NCBI RefSeq assembly: GCF_003063295.1
Contig: NZ_MUXF01000008.1
Span: forward strand, 32,718-94,710
Reading direction: 5' to 3'
Source of the DNA: Arcobacter lacus
GTDB taxonomy: Bacteria > Campylobacterota > Campylobacteria > Campylobacterales > Arcobacteraceae
Length of the DNA stretch: 61,993 bases
Every line of letters starts with the position of its first letter. Position 1 is the first letter of the stretch. The notes under the pieces are model-generated. The model saw only the letters and a list, made by a program, of their open reading frames with translations, ran no database searches and had not been told where the DNA came from. This document shows, one piece after another, positions 2,049 to 37,917 of this stretch. A program made the position numbers and the translations under genes.

Positions 2049-4634
2049 ATGTTAAGCGAAACCATAAGTTATAAAGGAATAACTATAAAAAGAGAGTTAT
2101 ATCCAATCATAAAATATATTGAAGATGTAGATAAATACAAAGATGAATTAGGAACTTTAAGTTCTTCTTGGGATATGTTAGCACTTTTAGGACAACTTGG
2201 AGATATAAATATAGATATTGGAAAAACAAAAGAAAATTTTTTAAATCTTACTTCAACTTTATTAAATCATTTAAGTTTTCAGCAAATAAAAAAAGTAACT
2301 CAAGAGATGAGATTTAAATCACAAGTTGCTATTGATGTATTAATAAGAAATTTATTTGAAAGAACAGCTGATATAGGATTTTTAGCAACTGATGATGATA
2401 TTAGAACATTTTTAGAAAATTTTGTCTCAAAATATGATGAAAATAGTTTAGTTATAAAACAAGAAATTCAAAAAAAATTCAAAGAATATGTTTCAAAATA
2501 CTCTATATATTATGATATTGTCTTATTTGATGTTCATGGAAAAATAGTTGTAAGATTAAATGAAGATGTGGATATTGAAAAAGTAGATACATCATTTATA
2601 CAAAAAGTTTTAAATACAAGTGATGATTATATAGAAAGTTATAAATATCATGATTTTATACCTCAATATAAAAAATCATTAGTTTATTCATATAAAGTAA
2701 CAAAATCAAATGATTTAGATAGTAAGAATTTGGGAGTTTTGGCTCTTTGCTTTAGATTTACAGATGAAATGAATGCAATTTTTGGAAATTTAGTAGATGT
2801 TAAAAATAAAGAGTGTTTAACAATACTAGATGAAGATGGTTATGTAATAGCAAGTAGCGACAAAGAACATATAAATTTAGGAGTAAAACTTCCTATAGTT
2901 TTAAATGAAAACTATAAAATAGTATCTTATGCAGGACGAGACTATATTGCTAAAACTTGTGAAACAAATGGTTATCAAGGGTTTTATGGGCTTAAATGGT
3001 ATGGACATATTATGATACCTCTTGAATATGCTTTTTTAAGTGATGAACTTAATAGTTTAGTTGTTGATGAAAATATTATAAATTCTATGATGGAGAATGA
3101 ACAACATTTTTCAAAAGAGTTAAAAGAAGTTTTTTATAATAGTAAAACAATTCAAGATAACTTAATAAGAGTTATTTGGAATGGTAATATTGTTCAAAGT
3201 AAATTAAACTCAACAAATAGAGAGTTTTCAAGAGCTTTATTAAATGAAATAGGTATTACAGGAAATAAAGCAAATTCTTCTTTGGACAATTTAAATCAAA
3301 CTATTATCTCATCTATACTAAAAGATTGTGAATTTTTATCTTCACTTGCTATTGATATTATGGATAGAAATCTTTATGAAAGAGCAAATGATTGTAGATG
3401 GTGGGCTTTAAACTCTTATTTTAAAGAAGTTTTAGATGATTATTCAACAATAAGTGAAAAAAAACAAAATCTAAGTTCTACTTTGAAGTACATAAATGAT
3501 TTATATACTGTATATTCAAATCTAATAATTTTTGATAAAAGTGGAAAAATTATTGCTGTTTCAAATGAAAAAGAGCAGTATCTTATTGGAAAGATTTTAA
3601 CTCAAGATTGGGTAGAAAAAACTTTAACTTTAAAAGATACTTCAAAATATTGTGTTTCGAAATTTGAAAAAACAAATCTTTATGAAAATGAATCAACTTA
3701 TATCTATTGTAGTGCGATACGTTCTTTTAAAAATGATAATGGTGTTGTAGGAGGAATTGCTATTATTTTTGATTCTTCAGTACAGTTTTATACGATGCTT
3801 GATGAGATTTTACCAAAAGATATTTATGGAAATAAACAAAAAGGAGTTTATGCTTTTTTCACTGATAAAAATAAACAAATCATTGCTACAACAAGTACAA
3901 ACTTTGAAGTAAATTCATATTTGGATATTGATGACTCATTTTTTAATTTAAGAAATGGTCAAAATTTAAGTCGTATTATAGAGTTTCGTGGAAATTATTA
4001 TGCTGTTGGAGTAAAATGTTCAAATGGTTACAGAGAGTATAAAAGTGCAGTTGATGATTATAAAAATGATGTTTTATCTTTTGTATTTATACTTATTGGA
4101 AAAGCAAATTCAAATGTTATTTTATCTCACTCAAAAACAAAATTTTTAACTTCTCAAAAAAGAGAATTTACAGGAGAAACTATTGAATTAGCAACTTTTT
4201 ATTTAGGTAAAAGATTGCTTGCAGTAAATTCAAAAAATGTAATAGAATCTATTGGAATAGAAGAACTTCAAGAATCAATAGAAATAGATAAAAAAAATCA
4301 TTTCAAAGGAATGGTTTTACATAAAAATAAACTAATTTCTGTTTTAGATATAAGAGATTTTGTAAATGAAGAGATAGAAGATGAAACTCTTAAAAATATA
4401 ATATTAGTAGAATATGATAGAGATAATGTTGAACATTGTGTAGGACTTTTGGTATCAACGCTTGAAACTATTTGTACAGTTGAAGAAAAATCAATCCAAC
4501 ATATTCAAAGTCACTTTTTAGGAAGTGGAACTTTGGTTGAAAGTCTTGTTGAAATAAAAGATAGCGAAGAGTCGAAAATCGCAATGCTTTTAAATATTAA
4601 AAAGTTAGATGATAACTTTACAAAAAGGGTTTAA
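2049..4634 (+). CDS. Soluble double-Cache-like protein with C-terminal CheW domain
   Basis: 861 aa with no signal peptide or membrane segment visible. Two similar modules are present. The first, at about 93-170, has RNLFERTADIGFLATD followed by a VLFDVHGKIVVRL strand. The second, at about 433-510, has RNLYERANDCRWWALN followed by LIIFDKSGKIIAV. Each helical stretch leads into a PAS/Cache-like fold. The last 145 residues or so (from ELATFYLGKRLLAVNS, ending LLNIKKLDD) resemble a CheW domain, which normally couples receptors to CheA. I infer a cytosolic ligand sensor plugged into the chemosensory array. There is no methylation or MCP hairpin region. The gene stands alone, with 140 bp upstream and an ATG at 2049. 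The ligand is unknown. Domain calls are by pattern and less certain for the Cache parts than for CheW. Confidence 0.75.
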   Translation: MLSETISYKGITIKRELYPIIKYIEDVDKYKDELGTLSSSWDMLALLGQLGDINIDIGKTKENFLNLTSTLLNHLSFQQIKKVTQEMRFKSQVAIDVLIRNLFERTADIGFLATDDDIRTFLENFVSKYDENSLVIKQEIQKKFKEYVSKYSIYYDIVLFDVHGKIVVRLNEDVDIEKVDTSFIQKVLNTSDDYIESYKYHDFIPQYKKSLVYSYKVTKSNDLDSKNLGVLALCFRFTDEMNAIFGNLVDVKNKECLTILDEDGYVIASSDKEHINLGVKLPIVLNENYKIVSYAGRDYIAKTCETNGYQGFYGLKWYGHIMIPLEYAFLSDELNSLVVDENIINSMMENEQHFSKELKEVFYNSKTIQDNLIRVIWNGNIVQSKLNSTNREFSRALLNEIGITGNKANSSLDNLNQTIISSILKDCEFLSSLAIDIMDRNLYERANDCRWWALNSYFKEVLDDYSTISEKKQNLSSTLKYINDLYTVYSNLIIFDKSGKIIAVSNEKEQYLIGKILTQDWVEKTLTLKDTSKYCVSKFEKTNLYENESTYIYCSAIRSFKNDNGVVGGIAIIFDSSVQFYTMLDEILPKDIYGNKQKGVYAFFTDKNKQIIATTSTNFEVNSYLDIDDSFFNLRNGQNLSRIIEFRGNYYAVGVKCSNGYREYKSAVDDYKNDVLSFVFILIGKANSNVILSHSKTKFLTSQKREFTGETIELATFYLGKRLLAVNSKNVIESIGIEELQESIEIDKKNHFKGMVLHKNKLISVLDIRDFVNEEIEDETLKNIILVEYDRDNVEHCVGLLVSTLETICTVEEKSIQHIQSHFLGSGTLVESLVEIKDSEESKIAMLLNIKKLDDNFTKRV

Positions 4635-32455: not shown

Positions 32456-32461
32456 TTTTAA

Positions 32462-32575
32462 GGCAAATTAATTTGCCTCTTTAGGGTTTGTTTACTTTTA
32501 ACAATTTTTCATAAATTGTGTTAAAAAGTGTAAAAAATGGTAAGGTCCCTTTTAGATTGGGACAATTTAAAAGGA
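32462..32575 (+). promoter_or_regulatory. Three-hairpin leader element A, before urtE
   Basis: P1: GGCAAAT (32462-32468) with ATTTGCC (32471-32477). A conserved CTTTAGG follows. P2: a long imperfect stem starting ACTTTT at 32494 and closing at AAAAAGT (32523-32529). P3: GTCCC (32545-32549) with GGGAC (32559-32563). It ends in ATTTAAAAGGA, the ribosome-binding site of urtE. The same parts in the same order precede ureAB (element B), with paired base changes in P1 and P3. Confidence 0.6.
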
Positions 32576-32583
32576 AAATAGTG

Positions 32584-33279
32584 ATGTTAAAAATAGAAAA
32601 AGTAAATCAATATTATGGACAAAGTCACACTCTTTGGGATTTAAATTTAGAGTTTAAAAAGGGTTGTTGTACTTGTGTTATGGGAAGAAACGGAGTTGGG
32701 AAAACAACTTTGAGTAAAGTTATCATGGGTTTACTTCCTATACGTGATGGAGGATTAATCTATAATGACCAAGATATCTCAAAACTTCCAGACCACAAAC
32801 GAGCAAGTATTGCAATAGGTTATGTTCCACAAGGAAGAGAGATATTTTCTCAACTAACAGTTTTGGAAAATCTTCAAATAGGAGTTATGTCAAATAGACA
32901 TAAAATCAAAAAAGTTCCTAGTAAAATCTATGATCTGTTTCCAGTTTTAAAAGATATGCAAAAAAGAAAAGGTGGAGATTTGAGTGGAGGGCAACAACAA
33001 CAACTTGCAATCGCAAGAGCTTTATGTATAGATCCAGAGTTTTTAATACTAGACGAACCAAGTGAAGGAATCCAACCAAATATTGTGGCGCAAATAGGAC
33101 AAGTTATTGATTATCTTACAAAAGAAGAGCAAATAACTGTTATGTTGGTTGAACAAAAACTTCCATTTGCAAGACGTCATGGAGATGATTTTTATGTACT
33201 TGATAGGGGAAGTGTGGTTGCAAGTGGTGAAATAGGGCAACTTAGTGATGAGATTATTAAGAAGTATATGTCGGTTTAA
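32584..33279 (+). CDS. urtE: Urea ABC transporter ATPase UrtE
   Basis: 231 aa LivF-type ATPase. It starts MLKIEKVNQYYGQSHTLWD. Walker A is GRNGVGKTT, the signature LSGGQQQQLAIARAL, and Walker B FLILDEPSEGIQP, the last being typical of UrtE. The frame is open upstream to an ATG at 32518, but that stretch lies inside the conserved leader. ATG 32584 has AAGGA 8 nt upstream, and GTG 32581 is also possible. The 128-bp gap from urtD is filled by leader element A, so this subunit may be controlled separately from urtABCD. Confidence 0.94.
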   Translation: MLKIEKVNQYYGQSHTLWDLNLEFKKGCCTCVMGRNGVGKTTLSKVIMGLLPIRDGGLIYNDQDISKLPDHKRASIAIGYVPQGREIFSQLTVLENLQIGVMSNRHKIKKVPSKIYDLFPVLKDMQKRKGGDLSGGQQQQLAIARALCIDPEFLILDEPSEGIQPNIVAQIGQVIDYLTKEEQITVMLVEQKLPFARRHGDDFYVLDRGSVVASGEIGQLSDEIIKKYMSV

Positions 33280-33297
33280 AGAATATAAATTTTTGCT

Positions 33298-33342
33298 TTT
33301 ATTGATGATAAATTTAATAAAGTTTAAATTATCATCAATAAA
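33298..33342. terminator. Terminator between urtE and the RelA/SpoT-domain gene
   Basis: TTTATTGATGATAA (33298-33311) pairs with TTATCATCAATAAA (33329-33342) across a 17-nt loop, with further partial pairing inside. It lies between convergent genes and is AT-rich on both sides, so it can serve both directions. Confidence 0.7.
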
Positions 33343-33358
33343 TTATTAAAAATTCTAA

Positions 33359-34444
33359 TTATTTGATTGAATCATATATTTCTTGAATAGATTCTAAAAA
33401 ATCTAAATCATTGCTATGAAAATTATGAATATAGCTTTCTTGCAGTTTTTTATTATCTAATTCTAATAGTAATATATATGATAAATAAAAATATGTGATT
33501 CCTTTTGGAAATGAATTTTCATCTTCTATTTCTTCTATTTCTTCTATTTCTTCTAAATAGTGGAAAAACTTAGTAGTGAATTTTTCTATGATAGATTTTT
33601 TCGTAATTAATAAATTATTTAATTCTTCAATGGTTTTTATATTAAAATAAGATAATCTATCTAAATACCTAGATAAAGAATTTAAATCAATTTTTGTATT
33701 TAAAAATGCTCGACCATCAGCATTTACAATATAGTTATCTAATTCAATCACTATTGGATTTTCTACAAAGAGCTGTAAACTATTTAAGTTTAAGTCCGTT
33801 TTAAGTAATTCATTTTTATCATTTCCAATTTTATTTTCATAAGATTCAATTGCTTTTTTTATTTCACAGAAATTTTCATCAGCAGTTTCAAGTAATCCGG
33901 CAATTCTTGAAAATTTTCTTCTTAATTCTTTTGGAATCCCTAATGAACTTTTATATCCTATGTCATGTTCTATTTCTGCCCAAGCATGTTGTAAGATACT
34001 TCGTATTTGTATTTCAAATTTTATATCTTTGTATTTTTTATATTCTGGTAATAATAATCTTCTTTCAGAAATTTTGCATATTAAATGATAGGATAAATAT
34101 CCAAATTTATCGGATTCTAACATAGATTTCTTATTTATTGAGTTTTCTTCATCAATATCAAATTCTTTTTTTATAATAGTTACTATTTTTTCTACATCAT
34201 CTTCAAAATATGAAATTATACGACAACCAACAACATCAGTAATATCATCAATAATTGAGTATTTTCCTGCCTTAGTATCTATCTTCTTTTCAAGACTATT
34301 TTTTTCTTTTACACGACTATATATGTAATGATAATTTACTTCATCAAGAAGTAACTCTTTTATTAAAACAACTAGCTTGTTTTTTAGATTATTATATAAC
34401 TTCTTATTTTCATTGTATTTATTCAGAATGTTTACTTTACTCAC
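33359..34444 (-). CDS. RelA/SpoT-domain protein (putative alarmone synthetase)
   Basis: 361 aa. The synthetase-type nucleotidyltransferase domain is at about 20-200. Visible parts are IIDDITDVVGCRIISYFEDD, DKFGYLSYHLIC (the guanine-stacking GY-S-H region) and EIQIRSILQHAWAEIEHDIG. There is no HD hydrolase domain. The C-terminal 150 residues are helical and unrecognised, with an EEIEEIEEIE run. It could make (p)ppGpp or act on other nucleotides like the toxic or defence small synthetases. No antitoxin gene is adjacent. It is oriented against the flanking urea genes and splits urt from ure, so it looks like an insertion. Confidence 0.8.
   Translation of the reverse strand: MSKVNILNKYNENKKLYNNLKNKLVVLIKELLLDEVNYHYIYSRVKEKNSLEKKIDTKAGKYSIIDDITDVVGCRIISYFEDDVEKIVTIIKKEFDIDEENSINKKSMLESDKFGYLSYHLICKISERRLLLPEYKKYKDIKFEIQIRSILQHAWAEIEHDIGYKSSLGIPKELRRKFSRIAGLLETADENFCEIKKAIESYENKIGNDKNELLKTDLNLNSLQLFVENPIVIELDNYIVNADGRAFLNTKIDLNSLSRYLDRLSYFNIKTIEELNNLLITKKSIIEKFTTKFFHYLEEIEEIEEIEDENSFPKGITYFYLSYILLLELDNKKLQESYIHNFHSNDLDFLESIQEIYDSIK
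33522..33555. repeat. 9-bp tandem repeat inside the RelA/SpoT-domain gene
   Basis: TCTTCTATT is repeated three times and then partially (33522-33530, 33531-33539, 33540-33548, 33549-33555). On the coding strand it gives Glu-Glu-Ile repeats. Unit changes keep the frame, so copy-number variation would alter linker length only. Confidence 0.8.
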
Positions 34445-34549
34445 TTATTTTTTCCCATTATTTTAAATATATCTTAAAATATTCTATATTAATAACTCTA
34501 AATAAGTTATAAAATAATAATAAATTTATTTTTATGTAAAAAATAAAAG

Positions 34550-34601
34550 TGTTGCTTTAGTGTTGTTTTTTCAAAATCCAACAAACAAAATCTATATAAT
34601 A
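34550..34601. promoter_or_regulatory. 11-bp-period direct repeat and -10 between RelA-like gene and ureD
   Basis: GTGTTG lies at 34550-34555 and 34561-34566 (CTTTA between), the reverse complement of the repeat before urtA. TATAAT at 34596-34601 is a likely -10 for ureD. Read on the minus strand, the repeat and the following T-rich stretch match the urtA promoter over about 30 bp, so it may instead or also serve the RelA/SpoT-domain gene. The direction is unresolved. Confidence 0.55.
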
Positions 34602-34680
34602 TTTATACAGGTGAAAAAAAAGTAATCTATTTTTTTTTGATAGAATATTTATAGATTTAAGAACGATTTTTAGGATAAAA

Positions 34681-35433
34681 ATGAGTATAAAGTTTAGTTT
34701 TAAAGATGAGGTTTTTTCTTTAGAAAAATTACAACTTCCTTCAAGAAATTATTATTTTAACGATAATGAAAACTATATAAAGTTATTAAATATAGGTGAA
34801 GGGATTTTTCCCAAAGATAAAATAAGAATATCTTTAAGCCTTGATAATTCAAACTTAATCCTTACAACTGAATCAGCCACAAAAATATATCCTAGCAAAA
34901 AAGAGTTTGGAATTCAAAAAATAGATATTATTTTAGAAAACAACTCAAATTTAGAGTTTATAAATGATGAGTTGATTTTGTACAAAGATTCACGTTATAT
35001 TCAGTTTTTTAATCTAAAAAGCGATGAAAATTCAACTTTTTTTTATACAGATATTTTAAGTCGTGGAAGAAGTTTTGAGAATTTTGATTTTTCAAATATG
35101 CTTATAAAAAACTCATTTTTTTGTGAAAAAAGTATTGAGTATATGGAAAAATTTGATGTAAAAGGTTATGAACTAAAAGATTATATCAGTAGAAAAAGCA
35201 GTAGCAATTTTATTTTTGCAAAGATTTATATAAAAACAAAAAACAATGAAGAGTTTTTAAATAGGATTTATTTGGAAAAGTTTGAGAGTTTTACATACAC
35301 TAAAAATAAAAAAATCATTCTTGGAGTAATCAGTTCAAATAATATGTTTGAGTTAAAAAATCAAATTTTTAATATTTGGAAACTTTATAGAAAAGAGTTA
35401 AATAAAAGTAAATTTAATTTAGGTAAACAGTAG
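34681..35433 (+). CDS. ureD: Urease accessory protein UreD (UreH)
   Basis: 250 aa scaffold protein that, with UreF and UreG, delivers nickel to apo-urease. It is a divergent, beta-rich family recognised here by LILTTESATKIYPSKKE (the usual L.TQ..TK.Y region), DSRYIQFFNLKSDENSTFFY and TDILSRGRSFENFDF (the D...GR....F region). AGGA lies 5 nt before the ATG. It comes first, ahead of ureAB, as in Arcobacter urease clusters. The last base of its TAG begins hairpin P1 of leader element B. Confidence 0.88.
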   Translation: MSIKFSFKDEVFSLEKLQLPSRNYYFNDNENYIKLLNIGEGIFPKDKIRISLSLDNSNLILTTESATKIYPSKKEFGIQKIDIILENNSNLEFINDELILYKDSRYIQFFNLKSDENSTFFYTDILSRGRSFENFDFSNMLIKNSFFCEKSIEYMEKFDVKGYELKDYISRKSSSNFIFAKIYIKTKNNEEFLNRIYLEKFESFTYTKNKKIILGVISSNNMFELKNQIFNIWKLYRKELNKSKFNLGKQ

Positions 35434-35531
35434 GCTTTTTTCTAAAAGCCCTTTAGGTTTTTGTTTACTTTTTTAGAAAAAGTAGTTATTTATGAGTAGG
35501 TTCCCTTTTTAATGGGAATCATTTAAAAGGA
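35433..35531 (+). promoter_or_regulatory. Three-hairpin leader element B, before ureAB
   Basis: P1: GGCTTTT (35433-35439) with AAAAGCC (35444-35450), then CTTTAGG. P2: ACTTTTT (35467-35473) with AAAAAGT (35477-35483). P3: TTCCC (35501-35505) with GGGAA (35514-35518), extendable by a GU and a GC pair. It ends in ATTTAAAAGGA, the ureAB ribosome-binding site. Compared with element A before urtE, three P1 pairs switch A:T to T:A and one P3 pair switches G:C to T:A, preserving the stems. Confidence 0.6.
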
Positions 35532-35537
35532 GAAAAG

Positions 35538-36215
35538 ATGTTTTTAACAAATCGTGAACAAGAAAAGTTATTGATTTATACAGCTTCAAAATTAGCCTTA
35601 GAGCGAAAAAACAGAGGTTTAAAACTAAACTATCCAGAAGCTGTGGCAATTATTAGTTCATATATTATTGAAGGTGCAAGAGATGGGAAAAGTGTTGCAC
35701 AACTTATGGTTGATGCTACAAAAGTTTTAAAAGAGGATGATGTTTTAGAGGGTGTTGCATCAATGATGTATATGGTTCAAGTTGAGGCGACATTTGAAGA
35801 TGGAACAAAGTTAGTTACAGTTCATAATCCAATTCCTTATGATAAAAACAAATTAATCCCTGGAGAATATCTTGTAGATAAAGGAGAGATAGAACTAAAC
35901 TCTTCAAAAGATATTATTACAATAGAGATAGAAAATAAAGGTGATAGACCAGTTCAAGTGGGTTCTCACTATCATTTTTTTGAGGTAAATAAAGAGCTTA
36001 GTTTTGAAAGAGCCAAAGCTTATGGAAAAAGAATCGATATTCCAGCTGGAACATCTGTAAGATTTGAACCTGGAAGTAAAAAGAGTGTAAACTTGATAGA
36101 TTTTGCAGGACGTAGATATATGAGTGGATTTAATGGTTTGGTTGAGGGCTTTTTAGACGATGAGACTACAAAAGCAAAAGCTATGGAAAATCTTTCAAAG
36201 TTTTTAGGAGAATAG
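35538..36215 (+). CDS. ureAB: Urease, fused gamma-beta subunit
   Basis: 225 aa. The first 100 residues are the gamma subunit ([40 protein letters not shown]). From about 110 the beta subunit follows ([48 protein letters not shown]). The fusion is like Helicobacter UreA. It assembles with UreC into the nickel urease that makes ammonia and CO2 from urea in the cytosol. AAAAGGAG precedes the ATG by a few bases. One base separates its stop from ureC. Confidence 0.97.
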
Positions 36216-36216
36216 T

Positions 36217-37917
36217 ATGAAAATATCAAAAGAAAAATATGCTTCTATGTATGGACCAACTGTTGGTGATAGATTTAGACTGGCTGATACAACACTTATT
36301 GCTAAAATAGAAAAAGATTATACTATTTATGGTGAAGAGAGTAAGTTTGGTGGTGGAAAAACTGTACGTGATGGTATGGCTCAAAGTCCAACGGCTGTAG
36401 ATGTTGCTGATTTGATTATTACAAATGCGATTATTATTGATTATACGGGAATTTATAAAGCTGATATTGGAATCAAAGATGGAAAAATCTTAGCTATTGG
36501 AAAATCAGGAAATCCAAATCTTTGTGATGATATTACAGATGGTTTAGAAATTGGAGCAAATACTGAAATTCTTTCAGCTGAGGGAAAAATCATAACTGCT
36601 GGTGGAATAGATACACATATTCACTTTATAAGTCCAGGTCAAATAAACGAGGCCTTAAGTAGTGGTGTAACTACTATGATAGGTGGAGGAACTGGACCAA
36701 ATACTGGAACAAATGCCACAACTTGTACTCCAGGAGAGTGGAATATCAGTAAAATGATACAAAGTGTTGATGATTTACCTTTAAATTTTGGATTTATGGG
36801 AAAAGGAAATAGTTCATCATATGAAGCTTTAAAAGTGCAAATAGAAGCTGGAGCAATGGGATTAAAACTTCATGAAGATTGGGGAAGTACACCAAACGCT
36901 ATTGATACTTGTTTAAGTGTTGCAGATGATTTTGATGTACAAGTTGCGATTCATACAGATACTCTTAATGAATCAGGATTTGTTGAAGCAACAGTTGGGG
37001 CATTTAAAAATAGAACAATACATACTTTCCATAGTGAGGGAGCAGGTGGTGGGCATGCACCTGATATTATGAAAGTGGCAGGCTTAGCAAATGTACTTCC
37101 ATCAAGTACAAATCCAACTTTACCATATACAAAAAATACAATAGAAGAGCATCTTGATATGCTTATGGTTTGTCACCATTTAAGCCCAAAAATTCCTGAA
37201 GATGTTAGTTTTGCAGAATCAAGAATTAGAGGAAAAACAATTGCTGCTGAAGATGTGTTACATGATTTAGGAGCTATTTCAATCACAAGTAGCGATTCAC
37301 AAGCTATGGGAAGAGTTGGAGAAGTAATCATACGAACTTGGCAAGTTGCAGACTCAATGAAACAACAAAGAGGAACACTTGAAGGTGATGATGAAAAATG
37401 TGATAATAATAGAATCAAAAGATATATTGCAAAATATACAATAAATCCTGCGATTGCTTCTGGAATTGATGAATATGTTGGAAGTGTTGAAGTTGGGAAA
37501 ATGGCAGATTTAGTTTTATGGAATAGGGCATTTTTTGGAGTAAAACCTGAAATTATCATAAAAGGTGGATTTATTGCTCTTGCTATGATGGGTGATAGTA
37601 ATGCTTCAATTCCTACACCTGAACCAAATATGTATAGACCTATGTTTGGAAGTCTTGGACGTGCAAGTAGTAAAACAAGTGCAATTTTTACTTCAAAAGT
37701 AGCTAGTTCAAATTTAAAAGATAAACTAGGAATTTCAAAAGAGGTATTACCAGTAAAAAATGTTAGAAATATTGGTAAAGCTGATATGAAACTAAATGAT
37801 TTTATAGGTGATATTGAAATAGATAGTGAAACATATGATGTAAAAATCAATGGAGAGCTAATAGAATCAAATTATGTTGAAAAAGTGCCAATGGCAAGAC
37901 GATATTTTATGTTTTAG
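36217..37917 (+). CDS. ureC: Urease alpha (catalytic) subunit
   Basis: 566 aa, the full family length. All active-site parts are visible: H134 and H136 ([11 protein letters not shown]), the carbamylated Lys near 217 ([12 protein letters not shown]), a His in [10 protein letters not shown], the Ni-ligand region [14 protein letters not shown], the flap His in MVCHHLSP and the Asp of [10 protein letters not shown]. It ends MARRYFMF, as usual. It is equivalent to Helicobacter UreB. It is tightly linked to ureAB (1 bp) and ureE (9 bp). Nothing suggests loss of function. Confidence 0.98.

What the first reader, a model, noticed from the sequence alone, without database searches (positions are those of the whole stretch)
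32462..35531. Repeated three-hairpin leader with paired base changes before urtE and before ureAB
Two intergenic stretches (32462-32575 and 35433-35531) share the same parts in the same order: a GGC...GCC hairpin right after the preceding stop codon, CTTTAGG, GTTTACTTTT opening a second stem, a third stem with CCC/GGG core, and ATTTAAAAGGA as the ribosome-binding site. In P1, GGCAAAT/ATTTGCC becomes GGCTTTT/AAAAGCC (three A:T pairs flipped to T:A). In P3, GTCCC/GGGAC becomes TTCCC/GGGAA. P2 differs in length but still closes. Changes on both sides that keep pairing suggest a selected RNA structure, not just a DNA repeat. Both lie inside urea operons and in front of a key subunit. It could be a riboswitch-like or protein-bound leader, an RNase processing site, or an mRNA stabiliser. 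I know of no described urease leader like this. A dispersed intergenic repeat family is the main alternative.
Basis: partly seen in the sequence, partly recalled or inferred. Interest (0 to 1): 0.78.

Follow-up and report, generated by a model that had tools for sequence, protein, structure and literature searches.

The report
Mobile hairpin repeat at ribosome-binding sites
The two look-alike leaders in front of urea genes are copies of a roughly 100-base hairpin element, seen so far only in the Arcobacter family, that inserts between operon genes at the ribosome-binding site and may fold over that site; it is not a urea sensor.

Summary
In detail: two three-hairpin leaders, 32461-32575 (urtE) and 35433-35531 (ureAB). 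They are not urea-specific. At least 10 copies lie in this genome, before hom, accD, ubiE, hypA and other unrelated genes. The core matches 74 of 104 Arcobacteraceae genomes; of 398 sampled from the order, 36 match, all in this family. In 81 copies read, each ends 3-11 nt before a start codon and 77 follow a codirectional gene.

The core is X-Y-X'-Y'.

Orthologous gaps without it exist: ureAB has it in 2 of 30 genomes read, in different clades; hypA shows empty, core-only, full, P1-P2-only and nested states. A tandem array exists.

Best reading: a mobile intercistronic repeat working like mycobacterial MIRUs, but aimed at the Shine-Dalgarno site, which it rebuilds and may partly mask. The mover is unknown; Y1 transposases do not track copy number. 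Regulation is inferred, not shown.

The parts
32461..32478 (+). P1 hairpin of the urtE copy (AGGCAAA-TTAA-TTTGCCT), just after the end of urtD
32493..32530 (+). P2 hairpin of the urtE copy: lower stem plus a variable upper stem
32544..32575 (+).
32584..33279 (+). urtE, the gene behind the first copy
   Evidence: TIGR03410 above its cut-off
35433..35450 (+). P1 of the ureAB copy (GGCTTTT-TTCT-AAAAGCC); its first G is the last base of the ureD stop codon TAG; terminator-like by pattern, not in the full-length MFE fold
35465..35485 (+). Short P2 hairpin of the ureAB copy
35499..35531 (+). Core X-Y-X'-Y' of the ureAB copy; X:X' = GGTTCCC/GGGAATC, Y:Y' = CCTTTTTAATGG/TCATTTAAAAGG (one mismatch)
   Evidence: gap without it in close relatives
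35538..36215 (+). ureAB (fused gamma/beta urease subunit), the gene behind the second copy

Best explanation
Both leaders are copies of a non-coding mobile repeat, found here only in Arcobacteraceae: a core of about 30 nt, or a full unit P1-P2-core (median 117 nt). Shown: in the copies read it sits in intercistronic gaps in one orientation and ends at the Shine-Dalgarno site of the next gene; orthologous gaps without it exist in close relatives; at ureAB two origins are needed on the tree; it nests and forms a tandem array. Shown by comparing copies: P3 (X:X') and a helix that buries the Shine-Dalgarno site (Y:Y') are both kept by paired changes although they exclude each other. Inferred: it integrates at an AAGG within the Shine-Dalgarno site and itself ends in AAGG, so the next gene keeps a site; the hairpins are needed for mobility (as single-stranded DNA or RNA signals); in mRNA they alter translation of the downstream gene and loosen its coupling to the upstream gene. 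It works like the MIRU repeats of mycobacteria, which tolerate insertion at start codons, but uses the Shine-Dalgarno site instead. Enzyme unknown.
For: Unrelated genes: 81 members read, 65 distinct cores, 41 gene families. Position: 77 of 81 behind a codirectional gene by a heuristic; start of a long frame 3-11 nt after the site in 81 of 81 (starts were sought within 22 nt). Gaps without it: ureAB has it in G000 and G093, not in the other 28 of 30 read, including three relatives with 96% identical UreAB (AAACAATAAGGAGGAAAGATG; window AAACAGTAGGC...AAAAGGAGAAAAGATG); starred branches of the UreAB tree force 2 changes. hypA, 48 gaps with a recognisable hypE end: 32 without it, 13 with it or parts (full G000, G003, G031, G032; core-only G008, G011, G019, G029; P2-core G033; P1-P2 only G007, G012, G027; nested G056), 3 with possible remnants. 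Nested or tandem copies: L063, L154, L319, L124. In G045 four unrelated genes carry the same core. Both helices: native arms -8.11 and -8.14 kcal/mol against shuffled -6.47 (sd 0.21) and -5.87 (sd 0.23), 0 of 2000 as good; control arm pairs show no excess. Site more buried than in other genes: mean unpaired 0.21 (81) against 0.39 (26), P 2e-4. Range: 74 of 104 family genomes; 36 of 398 in the order sample, all of this family (stricter filters).
Against: No mobilising enzyme found: Y1_Tnp in 31 of 104 genomes does not track copy number. No terminal inverted repeats. The ends are not fixed to the base; AAGG at both ends may be a target duplication or an element end, and loss of the core at hypA could be deletion between these repeats. 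Orthologous copies show compensatory and disruptive changes alike (crude), so mobility and RNA function cannot be told apart as the selected role. At hypA the empty gaps are predicted to be as closed or more closed at the site (0.01-0.26) than filled ones (0.10-0.43), so masking is not a general consequence of insertion. No expression data.
Confidence: 0.78

Rival explanations
1. A true bistable regulatory RNA: X:X' leaves the Shine-Dalgarno site free, Y:Y' hides it, and a common signal (temperature, a protein, ribosome traffic, or simply time after transcription) shifts the balance for dozens of genes.
For: Both exclusive helices are kept with covariation and have similar predicted energies; it ends at the site in the copies read; core-only copies persist at hom and hypA in several species.
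Against: Target genes are unrelated; presence is patchy between close relatives; P1-P2-only and decayed copies exist; changes within orthologous sets are mixed; no Rfam family.
Confidence: 0.2
2. A urea-, nickel- or nitrogen-responsive leader of the urea genes.
For: Two copies in the urea region; others before a urea-amidolyase-associated-like gene and hypA (these names are recalled from the protein sequences).
Against: Copies before hom, accD, ubiE, thrB, hisA, cysK, adk and others; ureAB lacks it in 28 of 30 and urtE in 25 of 30 orthologous gaps read.
Confidence: 0.01
3. A repeat moved by a Y1/HUH transposase (IS200/IS605 or REP-RAYT type; recalled), with Y acting as the guide that pairs with the AAGG target.
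For: Subterminal hairpins, no inverted ends, one orientation relative to a short directional target, arm Y complementary to the AAGG end. The window's own genome has one Y1_Tnp match (C4:41018, E 2.7e-9).
Against: Genomes with many copies and no Y1_Tnp match at E 1e-5 (G003, G007, G009, G045) and one with 17 Y1 matches and one copy (G041).
Confidence: 0.12
4. P1 is a partial transcription terminator and P2-core a promoter with a 5' hairpin, so the element splits operons into two transcripts.
For: P1 of ureAB scores as terminator-like, that of urtE does not; the AT-rich stretch before the core resembles the gnTAnaAT -10 box of C. jejuni (PMC3847290, passages).
Against: The tail CTTTAGGG is a poor U-tract; promoter-like sites in the region are at chance level (22 found, 22.8 expected); core-only copies lack both parts.
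Confidence: 0.15

Closest known systems
MIRU (mycobacterial interspersed repetitive units)
   Same: Short repeats that appear mobile and insert at translation-initiation signals with little harm to the next gene (PMC12548453, passage); tandem arrays (recalled).
   Different: MIRUs insert at start codons and carry an ORF coupled to the next gene; this one ends at the Shine-Dalgarno site, has no conserved ORF (18 of 55 full copies), and carries two exclusive hairpins. Different lineage and sequence.
REP/BIME, PATE and other hairpin repeats of the IS200/IS605 world (recalled)
   Same: Dispersed, non-coding, hairpin-rich, no inverted ends.
   Different: Y1 genes do not track copy number; in the copies read the target is the Shine-Dalgarno site of operon genes.
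Translational riboswitch platforms and RNA thermometers (recalled)
   Same: Anti-Shine-Dalgarno helix against an exclusive rival helix.
   Different: Unrelated target genes, patchy presence, no Rfam match.
Arcobacter sp. L intergenic motifs of Stav et al. 2019 (PMC6429828, passages seen; supplement not readable)
   Same: A related bacterium; most novel intergenic regions there were called rare, confined to the genus and left unnamed; one small motif is named HRC-4.
   Different: Whether any of them equals this element could not be checked.

Membership tests
MIRU-like intercistronic mobile repeat | Lies between codirectional genes | tested here: met
   77 of 81
MIRU-like intercistronic mobile repeat | Orthologous gaps without it; mobility | tested here: met
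   (by comparison; movement itself not observed)
MIRU-like intercistronic mobile repeat | Carries an ORF coupled to the downstream gene | tested here: not met
   18 of 55 full copies have any such ORF of 10 or more codons; 3 of 55 are open from P1 to the site. So it is not filed as a MIRU
Metabolite riboswitch | Targets share a pathway | tested here: not met
   41 gene families of unrelated function among 81 copies
Metabolite riboswitch | Member of an Rfam class | tested here: not met
   no match on the leaders
RNA thermometer | Helix over the Shine-Dalgarno site | tested here: met
   prediction only
RNA thermometer | Temperature-dependent translation | not testable with these tools
   needs reporter assays
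Y1/HUH-mobilised element (PATE, REP) | Cognate Y1 transposase in the genome | tested here: inconclusive
   31 of 104 genomes have a match, the own genome among them, not tracking copies; an enzyme may have been lost
Classical MITE (DDE type) | Terminal inverted repeats | tested here: not met
   end similarity 5.6 against 5.7 for shuffles, 55 copies

The most novel reading that the evidence does not exclude
A mobile element that finds Shine-Dalgarno sites by base pairing (arm Y against AAGG) and on insertion installs a two-state translation switch there, so that a genome acquires shared translational control of many unrelated operon genes by transposition.
Probability: 0.17. Interest if true: 0.85.

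Novelty: new variant of a known kind. Interest (0 to 1): 0.56.

Why it matters
It suggests that the ribosome-binding site itself can be the landing place of a mobile repeat, built so that the downstream gene keeps a site. It offers a natural series (empty, core-only, full, nested) at the same operon junctions for testing how intercistronic hairpins and Shine-Dalgarno masking change expression, and a warning that covariation in a leader repeated at a few genes need not mean a metabolite sensor.

Tried and rejected
Rfam at gathering and relaxed thresholds: nothing on the leaders. Urea- or nickel-specific leader: rejected by the gene list and the gaps without it. Y1 transposase as the mover: does not track copy number. 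Carriage on plasmids, phages or viral contigs: no match to the ureAB leader in the two BLAST collections, no exact match to one core pattern in viral contigs. A strict P1-P2 pattern in the own genome gave 3 hits, all with a core, but it missed several known copies (urtE, ureAB, hypA among them), so it says little about P1-P2 units without a core. In fetched loci 66 of 98 distinct pattern matches had a core; most of the other 32 look like chance matches, and the clear units without a core are the three hypA loci. In-situ compensation: in orthologous pairs the changed Y pairs were 37 doubly compensated against 78 broken, between different genes 1421 against 1346; this leans towards weaker upkeep after insertion, but the alignment was crude, pairs were counted in both directions, and I call it inconclusive. 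A first P1 finder had a wrong pattern and was redone (58 of 81; L071, L072 and L099 look spurious and were left out). Conserved leader peptide: not pursued beyond. Literature: searches showed no paper on such an Arcobacter element; the supplement of PMC6429828 could not be read.

Rows dropped: of 106 model matches in 81 loci I left out 26 opposite-strand twins caused by the near-palindrome; I added two weak own-genome hits judged by eye (ispH, ppaC; E 1.8 and 2.4); I dropped one truncated tandem copy (L063), giving 81. Only the stronger matches were read, and one search did not list all. Of 40 genomes with ureAB and 40 with urtE, 30 each were read; of 83 with hypA, 70. In one search, 13 of 20 fetched stretches were parsed and 7 were not found by my pattern.
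Full report
What was checked. The two leaders are in the sequence as described. Each has P1 right after the upstream gene, P2, and a 32-33 nt core ending in ATTTAAAAGGA shortly before the start of urtE or ureAB. Gene identities: urtD and urtE, ureD, ureAB, ureC. By BLAST the two leaders match each other only weakly (E 0.036), but both match a third copy strongly.

It is a dispersed family. BLAST of the own genome found further copies. A covariance model of eight own-genome cores (R1) finds nine loci at E below 1e-4, a tenth full copy at E 0.006, and two weak ones that look real by eye (ispH, ppaC). In the genus 30 of 31 genomes have a match at E 0.01, in the family 74 of 104 at E 0.001 in 16 of 20 genera; among 398 genomes drawn from the order 36 match, and all 36 are of this family (searches used stricter filters that lose weak matches). 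A scan of the species genome collection with one exact core pattern found 18 stretches, 12 with Arcobacter, Aliarcobacter or Arcobacteraceae in the title. The ones titled Desulfosporosinus and Helicobacter pylori share the hit position, or the contig lengths, with genomes G044 and G049 of this family, so they look like mislabelled bins.

Where it sits. I read 81 members (gene names partly recalled from the protein starts): hom, thrB, thrC, hisA, cysK, cysD, adk, tal, accD, ubiE, hypA, hemE, truD, ispH, response regulators and more, 41 gene families by a crude clustering (one further family was split off by hand). In all 81 the start of a long frame lies 3-11 nt behind the site, mostly 5-8, and 77 follow a gene in the same direction by a heuristic. 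So it is an element of operon gaps.

Anatomy. The core is X (GGTTCC) - Y (CCTTTTAAAT, sharing CC) - X' (GGAACC) - Y' (ATTTAAAAGGA). Y:Y' pairs about 12 bp and buries the Shine-Dalgarno site. They cannot form together; predicted energies are of the same order (-2.0 to -13.5 and -4.2 to -16.3 kcal/mol). In 42 cores, one per gene family, each member's arms fit each other better than arms shuffled among members: X:X' -8.11 against -6.47 (sd 0.21), Y:Y' -8.14 against -5.87 (sd 0.23), 0 of 2000 for both; the control pairings X:Y' and Y:X' show no excess. The model that found the copies included Y:Y' but not X:X', so the X:X' result is the less biased one. P1 was found in 58 of 81 by a script (three look spurious), with 27 different arm pairs; the script demands pairing, so this is descriptive. 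P2 has a conserved lower stem (CTACTTTT/AAAAGTAG or TTCTTTT/AAAAGAA) and very different upper stems that still pair in the copies looked at. Full length is 86-165 nt, median 117, in 55 copies.

It moves. ureAB: of 30 orthologous gaps read (40 genomes have the gene), 2 hold it (G000, G093) and 28 do not; some of the 28 are compact operon gaps, others have a longer, different upstream region. G003, G006 and G011, with 96% identical UreAB, read AAACAATAAGGAGGAAAGATG; the window reads AAACAGTAGGC...ATTTAAAAGGAGAAAAGATG. G094 and G093 give a second such pair. Starred branches of the UreAB tree force two changes, most simply two gains. urtE: held in 5 of 30 read (G000, G003, G035, G079, G082); 6 have a different repeat, one of them with a possible core remnant; 19 have compact gaps. 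A core also stands before urtE in G054 (L155). hypE-hypA: 70 genomes read, 48 with a recognisable hypE end. Of these 32 have no element; full in G000, G003, G031, G032; P1 lost in G033; core only in G008, G011, G019, G029; P1-P2 without core in G007, G012, G027; core followed by P1 and a second core in G056; possible remnants in G001, G015 and G068. Where the core is absent after P1-P2, the sequence runs ...AAAAGGAAACTA..; where present...AAAAAGG-TCCC...AAAAAGG-AAACTATT. So the core is bounded by AAGG, which fits insertion at AAGG and also deletion between direct repeats; I cannot tell these apart. Nested or tandem copies occur at L063, L154 and L319, and an array of at least three in L124. 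In G045 four unrelated genes carry the same core, with alike P2 in some.

What it does. Predicted openness of the Shine-Dalgarno site is 0.21 on average in 81 members and 0.39 in 26 other genes of the window (P 2e-4). At ureAB the value is 0.56 (G000) and 0.27 (G093) with the element and 0.58-0.74 in four gaps without it; at urtE 0.25 with it and 0.76-0.99 in the two gaps without it that could be scored (two could not). At hypA it is the other way: 0.10-0.43 with it, 0.01-0.26 in three gaps without it. I infer a gene-dependent effect on translation of the next gene and loss of coupling to the upstream one. The review PMC12548453 (passages seen) reports that structure around the downstream site and structure just after the stop codon both affect coupling. 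Whether the two-state core is used as a switch, or is kept only because moving copies need it, is open: orthologous copies show compensatory and disruptive changes alike.

What it is like. The nearest known kind is MIRU, described in the same review as apparently mobile and inserting at start codons with an ORF coupled to the gene. This element shares the logic but fails the ORF feature, so I do not call it a MIRU. It lacks inverted ends, and Y1 transposases do not track it, although the own genome has one. No Rfam class fits. Searches listed no paper on it, but the supplement of Stav et al. 2019 on Arcobacter sp. L intergenic motifs (PMC6429828) was not readable.

Noticed in passing
window 36364-36655, minus strand: Rfam RF02514 (5' ureB antisense sRNA) matches above its cut-off inside ureC. 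It may be only protein-coding similarity.
   Followed up: no
window 33362-34444, minus strand: A gene with a RelA/SpoT domain (PF04607, E 2e-20) lies opposite to the operon between urtE and ureD; the NCBIfam GTP diphosphokinase model matches below its cut-off.
   Followed up: no
L193, L194, L198, L201, L204, L217, urtD-urtE gap: A different hairpin repeat (about AAATTCAAATTATG...CACTATTAC...GCCTTGTACTAGCAACATACTTTGAATTT) occupies the same gap in other genomes.
   Followed up: no
L124, about 2300-2800 and 3890-4060, minus strand: Tandem array of at least three elements about 117 bp apart with a small ATG AAG TAA frame at the joints, and a nested pair nearby; part of the array is masked.
   Followed up: partly
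L052, L081, L090, L097, L039, L114, L089, L094, L108; L111, L118, L152: An extra hairpin (about TCTCAAAGAGAGTTCTAAAGAACAAG) stands between CTTTAG and P2 in the first nine, and another (about TTCATAGCGTAGTCTTGTGACAAACGAAGTGAA) in P2 of the last three: inserts within the insert.
   Followed up: no
L122, L127, L128: Records titled Desulfosporosinus and Helicobacter pylori share a hit position or contig lengths with G044 and G049 of this family; the titles look wrong.
   Followed up: no
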